DNA of 64,000 nt from a bacterium. Lineage in GTDB: Bacteria > Hinthialibacterota > Hinthialibacteria > OLB16. A program made the translations under genes and the position numbers. Below, one piece after another: positions 31,787-33,770 of this stretch (within the stretch, counting starts at the first letter, position 1; the number at the start of each line of letters is the position of its first letter). The notes under the pieces were generated by a model. It saw nothing but the letters and a program-made list of their open reading frames with translations. It was not told the DNA's origin and searched no databases. The stretch lies in contig JAJVIK010000001.1 in the NCBI GenBank assembly GCA_022072055.1, positions 124,001-188,000 on the forward strand, written 5' to 3'.

Positions 31787-32016
31787 GAACCCCTATTGAC
31801 CTGATGCCAAGGGCCTACGCACTACGAATGAGTCATAGCCAACATAGAGTCGCGGTGAGGGCTTCATGAATCCCATGACCCGTGCCATCTGCCTCTCTTG
31901 AAAGTCTAAACGCCAAAAAACAAAAGAACACTTTAGCTATTGACGGTCTGGCAACAAGGATCCACGATACCCCTATAGGTGAAGACACTAAAAACCTTAT
32001 CGGAGGTCCGGGAACC

Positions 32017-33363
32017 ATGGGTGCCACCCAGCTTTACATCGTTCGTAACAATCGCGCACGAGCCAGCCTGCTGACCTCCCTTGCAGCGCAGCGGCTGACT
32101 CGCGATGCTCGAATCTCTCAGATTAGAGAGCTCCTTCGGGTCCGCGACGCAAGTGAAGCGGAGAAGACTTTTCAGTCATGGATTGTCGACGCCGGCGCGA
32201 AGCTCATGAGACTGCTCCAGACAGATGTGGGGACACTCTTGTCACAGTTTGAAACGGGCGCCGCCAACAAAGCCCCGTTCGGCTCCGTGACCGGGATGAG
32301 CCTTGTCCGCATGAGTGAAGAGGACGCGGACCGGATGCGGAAGGAGTTGCCCGGTGTGGCCGTCGTTCGTGATCGACCGCTCTCACTCATCCGTCCCAAC
32401 AGGCCGACCGGGGGGAAACAAGCCAGAGTAGCTCGCGCGGATATCTGGCATCAGGAGGCGACCTGGTGGAGTGCCGCGAAGCGAACCGGAATGGCTGCCA
32501 CCGGACAGGGCGTGACCATCGCGGTCCTTGATACCGGGGTGGATGAAACCCATCCCGAGATCCAAGGCAAGGTTTCCGCGGGATATCGGTTTGACGTTGC
32601 CAAGGGAGAGGTCGTGAGAATGACGCCGTCAACCGACACGGAGGGTCATGGGACTCATGTCGCGGGACTGATTTGCGGAAACACTGTCGGGCATGCCCCC
32701 GGAGCCCGAGTCCTGAACGGGACTATGATCCCAAACGGGGAAGGCAATCTCTCCGACTTTGCCTTCGCGTTGGAGTGGACCGCCCTCCGCCCCGAGGTTC
32801 AAATCATGAACATGTCGGCGGGCATCCCAGGGTTCATCCCTGAACTACGCAGCGCGATGGAGGAGCTCGTGGCGGTGGGGGTCCTTCCGGTCATTGCCGT
32901 CGGAAATGAAGGGCGGCACCGAACCCGCAGTCCTGGGAATTTCCTCGAGGCGCTATCTGTCGGCGCGACGAACAAAGAGGGGCGTGTGGCAAGTTTCAGC
33001 GGATCCGGAACCATGATCGTCGACAATAGCGAATACAATGTCCCCGATCTTGTGGCCCCCGGAGAAGGAGTCTTGTCGTGCGTGGTTGGAGGAGGGTACG
33101 AGCCTTGGGATGGAACCTCCATGGCCACCCCGATTGTTTCCGGGATTGCGGCGCTGATCATCGAGAAGTACCCTAACATCACCGTAACTGATCTTTCGGA
33201 TGAGCTCGTCGCGAATTGCGCTAAACTCGAGCGCAGTCCTGAGTGGCGACAGGGACATGGCCTTGTCCAAGTCCCGAAAAAGCTCGCCAGGGGTCACGCG
33301 CGGAAGAAATCGACAACTGGGAAGAAAAAGGCCGCTGGTAAGCGACCGAAAAGGGGTCAATGA
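32017..33363 (+). CDS. Subtilisin-like (S8) serine protease without signal peptide
   Basis: The 448-residue product has the full S8 catalytic set: Asp172 in VLDTGVDETHPE, His211 in EGHGTHVAGL, oxyanion Asn297 in AVGNEG and Ser368 in DGTSMATPIVSG. Residues about 40-130 resemble a short I9-like propeptide ending at a Lys/Arg-rich linker. The C-terminus is very basic (KKSTTGKKKAAGKRPKRG). No Sec signal is visible, so it looks like an intracellular or non-classically exported subtilase. I chose the ATG at 32017, after GGAGG; an in-frame GTG at 31882 is possible but lacks a ribosome binding site. Its stop overlaps the next ATG by four bases. Upstream DNA is AT-richer than the neighbours, suggesting transfer. 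Confidence 0.88.
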   Translation: MGATQLYIVRNNRARASLLTSLAAQRLTRDARISQIRELLRVRDASEAEKTFQSWIVDAGAKLMRLLQTDVGTLLSQFETGAANKAPFGSVTGMSLVRMSEEDADRMRKELPGVAVVRDRPLSLIRPNRPTGGKQARVARADIWHQEATWWSAAKRTGMAATGQGVTIAVLDTGVDETHPEIQGKVSAGYRFDVAKGEVVRMTPSTDTEGHGTHVAGLICGNTVGHAPGARVLNGTMIPNGEGNLSDFAFALEWTALRPEVQIMNMSAGIPGFIPELRSAMEELVAVGVLPVIAVGNEGRHRTRSPGNFLEALSVGATNKEGRVASFSGSGTMIVDNSEYNVPDLVAPGEGVLSCVVGGGYEPWDGTSMATPIVSGIAALIIEKYPNITVTDLSDELVANCAKLERSPEWRQGHGLVQVPKKLARGHARKKSTTGKKKAAGKRPKRGQ

Positions 33364-33770
33364 GATTAAAGCCGATCCACCGGTCAAAAATTGACCCGGA
33401 GTTCGTGGCCGCTTTGGAGGAGGCAACGGGAGACGAACCCATTCGAGCGCTTATGCTGCTCGGAGGGTCCTCCTCGACCACCTCGGTGGAGACGGTCGAG
33501 GAGGGGCGTGATTCGACCGATCGAGTGACGCTCAGAAAGAGACTCATCGAGGCTCGCGGGAAGGAACTGCAGGGGGAGATCGGCACCACGCTGGACAAGC
33601 TGAGGGAGCTTTCTCTATCTCCCCGTGGCGGAAGAGTTCTTCACACGGTGGTGGTCGAGGGCCCGGCGCAATCGATTGTGAAGGCGCTTGAGATGTCCGA
33701 GGTTCAGCATGCCACCCTGGACCGCAAGGTCAGGGTGGTTCACCCACGCCCCCCAAGGACCTTCAAGTAA
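33360..33770 (+). CDS. Free-standing I9-like subtilase propeptide/inhibitor candidate
   Basis: The 136-residue product starts at an ATG overlapping the protease stop (ATGA), so it is translated with it. The C-terminal segment GGRVLHTVVVEGPAQSIV followed by KALEMSEVQHATLDRKVRVV has the beta-alpha-beta ending of I9-type inhibitor/propeptide domains, in which the last strand runs through the enzyme's active site. An N-terminal part (IDPEFVAALEEATGDEPIRA) is helical. The likely role is an inhibitor or folding chaperone of the adjacent subtilase, encoded as a separate protein rather than as its prodomain. I infer this from the pattern and the overlap; the similarity is by eye only. No signal peptide is present. 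Confidence 0.6.
   Translation: MRLKPIHRSKIDPEFVAALEEATGDEPIRALMLLGGSSSTTSVETVEEGRDSTDRVTLRKRLIEARGKELQGEIGTTLDKLRELSLSPRGGRVLHTVVVEGPAQSIVKALEMSEVQHATLDRKVRVVHPRPPRTFK

What the first reader, a model, noticed from the sequence alone, without database searches (positions are those of the whole stretch)
32017..33770. Subtilase and free-standing inhibitor-like protein in a four-base overlap: possible protease-antidote pair
The protease has the complete S8 catalytic set and no secretion signal. Its stop overlaps a gene for a 136-residue protein ending in an I9-like strand pattern. A cytoplasmic protease encoded with a separate inhibitor recalls toxin-antidote logic or a controlled effector, and the leader region is AT-richer than the surroundings, as in acquired islands. 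I do not know a described system with this exact layout.
Basis: partly seen in the sequence, partly recalled or inferred. Interest (0 to 1): 0.7.

Follow-up and report, generated by a model that had tools for sequence, protein, structure and literature searches.

The report
Cytoplasmic protease with co-encoded prodomain-like inhibitor
Two overlapping genes encode a protein-cutting enzyme kept inside the cell and a small partner whose tail copies the enzyme's own built-in blocking segment, so the partner probably holds the enzyme in check, as in the known PopC/PopD pair of Myxococcus.

Summary
A 448-residue subtilase (32017-33363) has Asp172, His211, Asn297 and Ser368, has no signal peptide, and overlaps by four bases a gene for a 136-residue protein (33360-33770). 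The pair is real and conserved. The same two genes, in the same order, occur in six Chloroflexia genomes (4-base overlap in five, 1-base in one). In 158 Chloroflexia genomes the protease clade and the small protein occur in exactly the same six. In the three closest of these genomes both genes are under purifying selection. The best evidence for inhibition is internal. The protease has its own N-terminal I9-like domain ending (D)(R/Q)P(L/I)xLIxPR, and the small protein ends in the same motif (profile score 28.7 against 11.3 +/- 2.0 for shuffles, 0 of 1000). The small protein therefore looks like a free-standing copy of the prodomain's active-site strand. Toxin-antidote, defence-island and acquired-island readings found no support: the neighbours are dnaN, rlmN, lon and feoB. 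A described system has nearly this layout: Myxococcus PopC/PopD. By sequence the pair is not PopCD (separate protease clade, unrelated inhibitor). Fold prediction was too weak to prove the I9 fold, and no docking could be run. Verdict: a new variant of a known kind.

The parts
31787..32016 (.). AT-richer leader between the upstream APH-like kinase gene and the protease; Shine-Dalgarno-like GGAGG near 32001-32007
   Evidence: GC 49.1% vs window 61.7%; sequence
32017..33363 (+). signal-less S8 subtilase, 448 aa, catalytic D172/H211/S368, oxyanion N297
   Evidence: PF00082 E 2e-48; motifs
32017..32406 (+). N-terminal domain of the protease (residues 1-130), inferred built-in I9-like prodomain ending RDRPLSLIRPN
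   Evidence: alignment; weak in-register match to I9 propeptides, hhalign P 0.011
33286..33360 (+). Lys/Arg-rich C-terminal tail of the protease (residues 424-448), absent from the Chloroflexota homologues compared
   Evidence: alignment
33360..33363 (+). ATGA overlap: protease stop and start of the small gene (likely translational coupling)
   Evidence: same 4-base overlap in five Chloroflexia loci, 1-base TAATG in a sixth
33360..33770 (+). 136-aa small protein, inferred free-standing prodomain-like inhibitor of the protease
   Evidence: conserved pair and co-occurrence; C-terminal half matches the protease's own N-terminal domain; secondary structure
33717..33758 (+). C-terminal segment LDRKVRVVHPRPPR (residues 120-133), counterpart of RDRPLSLIRPNRPT in the protease's N-terminal domain
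   Evidence: 12-mer profile score 28.7, shuffles 11.3 +/- 2.0, 0/1000

Best explanation
A two-gene regulatory module: a subtilase made without a signal peptide, and a free-standing prodomain-like protein that binds its active-site cleft and holds it inactive in the cell. The protease has a built-in I9-like N-terminal domain (foldase and first lock). The small protein, whose start overlaps the protease stop and is therefore probably translated in step with it, inserts its C-terminal strand (LDRKVRVVHPRPP) where the protease's own prodomain end (RDRPLSLIRPNRP) would lie, and so acts in trans as a second lock. The protease would work when the small protein is removed (degraded or out-competed), or after the protease leaves the compartment, as PopC does when PopD is degraded. 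Shown: the gene pair, its conservation and co-occurrence, the shared C-terminal motif, no signal peptide. Inferred: I9 fold, binding, inhibition, coupling, release signal, substrate.
For: Same gene order, adjacent or overlapping, in six Chloroflexia genomes. Protease clade and small protein found in exactly the same 6 of 158 Chloroflexia genomes. Protease clade supported 100/99. Purifying selection on both genes, omega 0.15-0.18 (small) and 0.09-0.13 (protease) among the three closest loci. Small protein aligns to the protease's own N-terminal domain over their C-terminal halves, E 6e-4, motif 0/1000 in shuffles, reversed control P 0.28. Secondary structure E27-34 H53-85 E95-102 H103-112 E115-120 fits the I9 order. 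Precedent: PopD forms a complex with signal-less subtilase PopC and holds it back until degraded (PMC6434023, PMC4320627). Further signal-less subtilases followed by small I9-like ORFs: Azospirillum plasmid, L031, L115, Rhizobium plasmid.
Against: The small protein has no significant match to Pfam I9; match to an I9 profile built here is only P 0.026, and the reversed control gives 0.052. AlphaFold model is low confidence (mean pLDDT 57.8) and fold search finds nothing significant. No complex could be modelled. The pair is rare: one genome outside Chloroflexia among those searched, so support rests on seven loci. A foldase acting in trans, or a substrate, would leave much the same sequence traces.
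Confidence: 0.68

Rival explanations
1. The small protein is an intermolecular chaperone (foldase in trans) that helps the protease fold, rather than a regulatory inhibitor.
For: Subtilisin prodomains act as foldases and inhibitors (established knowledge); prodomain-like C-terminus and coupled genes fit both.
Against: The protease already has its own N-terminal I9-like domain, so a second foldase is less needed. The two roles are not exclusive.
Confidence: 0.14
2. The small protein is a dedicated substrate or propeptide-bearing effector that the protease cuts, for example at the shared DRPL..PR segment.
For: Dedicated proteases are often encoded beside their substrate (general knowledge); the shared segment could be a cleavage sequence in both proteins.
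Against: No gasdermin, lantibiotic or other substrate family is recognised. The conserved block (GG...HTVVVEGPA...L) covers the C-terminal half rather than only a cleavage site, and almost nothing would be left after the shared site.
Confidence: 0.08
3. Toxin-antitoxin or anti-phage protease module in which the small protein is the antidote.
For: Overlapping gene pair; PADLOC 'subtilase' model matches the S8 domain, E 1e-31.
Against: That match is to the generic S8 fold. Neighbours are dnaN, rlmN, PQQ, DUF1501 in the window and lon, feoB, dnaK, mnmE-like genes elsewhere. Not found in phages, plasmids or viral contigs. Normal GC of both genes does not suggest recent transfer.
Confidence: 0.06
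4. A true PopC/PopD orthologue that matures an intercellular signal after starvation.
For: Same anatomy: signal-less subtilase of about 50 kDa with N-terminal domain of no recognised family, small inhibitor gene directly downstream.
Against: The proteases lie on different well-supported branches, about 30% identical. PopD and the small protein share no detectable similarity (hhalign E 0.62), and the shared-terminus test that works here fails for PopC/PopD.
Confidence: 0.04

Closest known systems
PopC/PopD of Myxococcus xanthus (regulated protease PopC and its inhibitor PopD)
   Same: Subtilase without signal peptide, about 470 aa, N-terminal part without a recognised domain; small inhibitor encoded directly downstream in one operon; inhibitor complexes the protease (PMC6434023, PMC4320627). 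In related genomes read here the PopD start overlaps or follows the popC stop within about 65 nt.
   Different: Separate S8 branch, about 30% identity; inhibitor sequences unrelated; no shared C-terminal motif between PopC and PopD; the G659 copy (L087) has a 9-nt gap and TTG start, not the ATGA overlap. Secretion, ppGpp and FtsH control are unknown here.
Subtilase propeptides (Inhibitor_I9, PF05922) and free-standing I9 inhibitors such as fungal POIA1 and yeast Pbi2 (the last two recalled, not tested)
   Same: Inhibition by a C-terminal tail lying in the subtilisin cleft; beta-alpha-beta-alpha-beta order predicted.
   Different: Below Pfam detection; weak profile match only.
Bacillus intracellular subtilisin Isp1 and inhibitor IPI/BsuPI
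   Same: Cytoplasmic subtilisin with a separate intracellular protein inhibitor (PMC3901451); nearest solved structure to the protease is an intracellular serine protease.
   Different: IPI is an Ig-like all-beta protein; Isp1 has an 18-residue propeptide, not a full N-terminal domain.
S8 proteases paired with gasdermins or in defence operons (HET-Q2, IetS)
   Same: S8 catalytic domain; two-gene cluster (PMC10989679).
   Different: Partner is not a gasdermin or ATPase; IetS match covers only part of the S8 fold; no defence genes nearby.

Membership tests
Peptidase family S8 (subtilase) | Asp/His/Ser triad and S8 fold | tested here: met
   PF00082 E 2e-48; D172, H211, S368, N297
PopC/PopD | Signal-less subtilase followed directly by a small gene | tested here: met
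   layout compared
PopC/PopD | Protease in the PopC clade | tested here: not met
   tree: window with Chloroflexota 100/99, PopC apart 100/100
PopC/PopD | Small protein homologous to PopD | tested here: not met
   hhalign E 0.62
PopC/PopD | Small protein binds and holds back the protease | not testable with these tools
   needs biochemistry
Inhibitor_I9 (propeptide-like inhibitors) | Match to PF05922 above cut-off | tested here: not met
   no match
Inhibitor_I9 (propeptide-like inhibitors) | I9 fold (beta-alpha-beta-beta-alpha-beta) | tested here: inconclusive
   predicted order fits but mean pLDDT 57.8 and no significant fold match
Inhibitor_I9 (propeptide-like inhibitors) | C-terminal strand equivalent to a prodomain's cleft-binding end | tested here: met
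   shared motif with the protease's own N-terminal domain, 0/1000 shuffles; that this strand lies in the cleft is inferred
Toxin-antitoxin / defence module | Association with defence islands or mobile elements | tested here: not met

The most novel reading that the evidence does not exclude
Signal-less subtilases with a built-in prodomain plus a second, separately encoded prodomain-like protein are a widespread but unrecognised control device, evolved several times (window/Chloroflexia clade, Azospirillum-type clade, Rhizobium type, PopCD), with PopD itself a degenerate I9 inhibitor; in the window clade the second lock arose by copying the protease's own prodomain.
Probability: 0.3. Interest if true: 0.6.

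Novelty: new variant of a known kind. Interest (0 to 1): 0.42.

Why it matters
It extends the PopC/PopD principle, a potent protease kept safe by a co-encoded partner, beyond myxobacteria. It also suggests how such a partner arises: by copying the protease's own blocking domain. If true, it predicts a testable inhibitor, with a mapped binding segment, for an uncharacterised protein family that no library used here recognises.

Tried and rejected
Defence or acquired island: rejected on neighbours, absence from mobile collections and gene GC. Direct PopCD orthology: rejected by tree and profile comparison. Same C-terminal test on PopC/PopD: no signal (one search was a failed first run). AlphaFold of the protease (four-sequence alignment) failed, mean pLDDT 33.7; fold search of the small protein gave nothing with E <= 0.001 (ProN-Tk-SP, a subtilase with its propeptide, was rank 7 at E 2.5, not counted). 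Viral-contig scans for the protease and small protein: none. PDB profile search with the small family: nothing. Weak hits L011-L014 and L103 were not part of a matching gene pair and were dropped.

Full report
WHAT IS THERE. The window holds a 448-residue subtilase at 32017-33363 and a 136-residue protein at 33360-33770, sharing the four bases ATGA. The protease matches Peptidase_S8 at E 2e-48 with Asp172, His211, Asn297 and Ser368 and no hydrophobic N-terminal stretch. A longer GTG start (31882) is open, but the Shine-Dalgarno-like GGAGG before ATG 32017 and the start of the homologues favour 32017. The small protein matches nothing in Pfam, NCBIfam or PADLOC. The genome has nine S8 matches but only this one copy of the small gene.

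CONSERVATION. The first relative, 33% identical over residues 1-130, came from a Chloroflexales genome, where an S8 gene 48% identical to the window's protease overlaps it by the same four bases. Further searches gave six Chloroflexia genomes in all: five with the 4-base overlap and one with a 1-base TAATG overlap. In 158 Chloroflexia genomes the protease clade (E below 1e-200) and the small protein occur in the same six; a seventh small-protein hit (E 7e-4) was a false lead, and a seventh protease hit (E 1e-62) belongs to another clade. In the three closest genomes dN/dS is 0.15-0.18 for the small gene and 0.09-0.13 for the protease. Outside Chloroflexia no member was found: 14 genomes of the window's own phylum, 386 genomes drawn across the domain, phages, plasmids and viral contigs. 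The pair is rare.

THE KEY INTERNAL TEST. The protease's residues 1-130 form a domain of no recognised family that ends RDRPLSLIRPN; in the homologues it ends ANQPISVIHPRR, ADQPISVIHPRQ, RDRPLDLIHPRQ and so on. The small proteins end LDRKVRVVHPRP, LDQPLDLVEPRQ, LDRPLELVEPRP and so on. Profile comparison aligns residues 87-134 of the small protein to 86-132 of the protease with E 6e-4; the reversed control gives 0.28. The best 12-residue block scores 28.7 against 11.3 +/- 2.0 in 1000 column shuffles, never reached. In known I9 propeptides this last strand leads into the subtilisin active site (established knowledge), so the small protein is best read as a free-standing prodomain mimic. Direct I9 homology stays weak: P 0.026 for the small protein and 0.011 for the protease's domain against a profile of secreted subtilase propeptides, with 0.052 in one reversed control. 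The AlphaFold model shows beta-alpha-beta-alpha-beta but at mean pLDDT 57.8, and fold search is not significant. The protease model failed.

KNOWN SYSTEMS. PopC of Myxococcus xanthus is a signal-less 50.8 kDa subtilisin with an N-terminal part of no recognised domain; PopD forms a complex with it, inhibits its secretion and is degraded on starvation by a ppGpp- and FtsH-dependent route (PMC6434023, PMC4320627). In a Myxococcus-like genome (G659, in the family of the DUF2378-rich genome G041) the popC-like gene encodes 475 aa, 50.9 kDa, and a TTG-started popD-like gene begins 1437 bases after the popC start, matching the spacing implied by PMC4320627. The layout is thus known. Membership is not: the window clade (100/99) and PopC (100/100) are separate branches, PopD and the small protein show no similarity, and the shared-terminus test fails for PopC/PopD. 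Bacillus Isp1 with IPI is a second functional analogue, with an Ig-like inhibitor (PMC3901451).

OTHER PAIRS. Signal-less subtilases followed by small I9-like ORFs were also seen on an Azospirillum plasmid (sub-threshold Pfam I9 at 13.3 bits), in L031, in L115 and on a Rhizobium plasmid. The first three small proteins together match the I9 profile at P 5e-4. These suggest a broader theme, but are few and partly unannotated.

CONTEXT. Neighbours are an NHL protein, rlmN, dnaN, a methyltransferase and an APH-like kinase upstream, and PQQ, DMFA2_C and DUF1501 genes downstream. The one PADLOC match nearby is a generic methyltransferase domain. Chloroflexota loci lie near lon, feoA/feoB, dnaK, mnmE-like and MglA-like genes, named here from sequence inspection only. 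No defence or mobile context was seen. The leader is AT-rich (49.1% GC), the genes are not.

HOW IT LIKELY WORKS. Shown: paired, conserved genes; catalytic set; no signal peptide; shared C-terminal strand. Inferred: the small protein folds like an I9 domain, places its C-terminal strand in the cleft and holds the protease inactive in the cytoplasm, with release when it is removed. Whether the protease is then secreted, and what it cuts, is unknown.

Noticed in passing
L088-L096 (Myxococcaceae genomes): Most Myxococcaceae genomes searched hold 1-3 further PopD-like genes of about 97 aa away from popC, with no S8 gene beside those read; several sit next to a large PAS-like sensor ORF (identified by eye only).
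   Followed up: partly
L016 93-3246 (Rhizobium sp. BG6 plasmid): MBL-fold-like ORF, signal-less S8 protease and a 120-aa I9-like ORF in a row.
   Followed up: partly
L019 341-4639 (Sphingomonas plasmid): Caspase-family protein, S8 protease and TIR-domain protein in one cluster, a possible conflict system.
   Followed up: no
L007, L031, L115: A second clade of signal-less subtilases, each followed by a small I9-like ORF (gap about 100, 35 and 570 nt).
   Followed up: partly
window 33286-33360: Lys/Arg-rich 25-residue tail on the protease, absent from the Chloroflexota homologues compared.
   Followed up: no
L009 311-430: Start of this protease copy does not read in frame with its relatives, so the start or assembly is uncertain there.
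   Followed up: no
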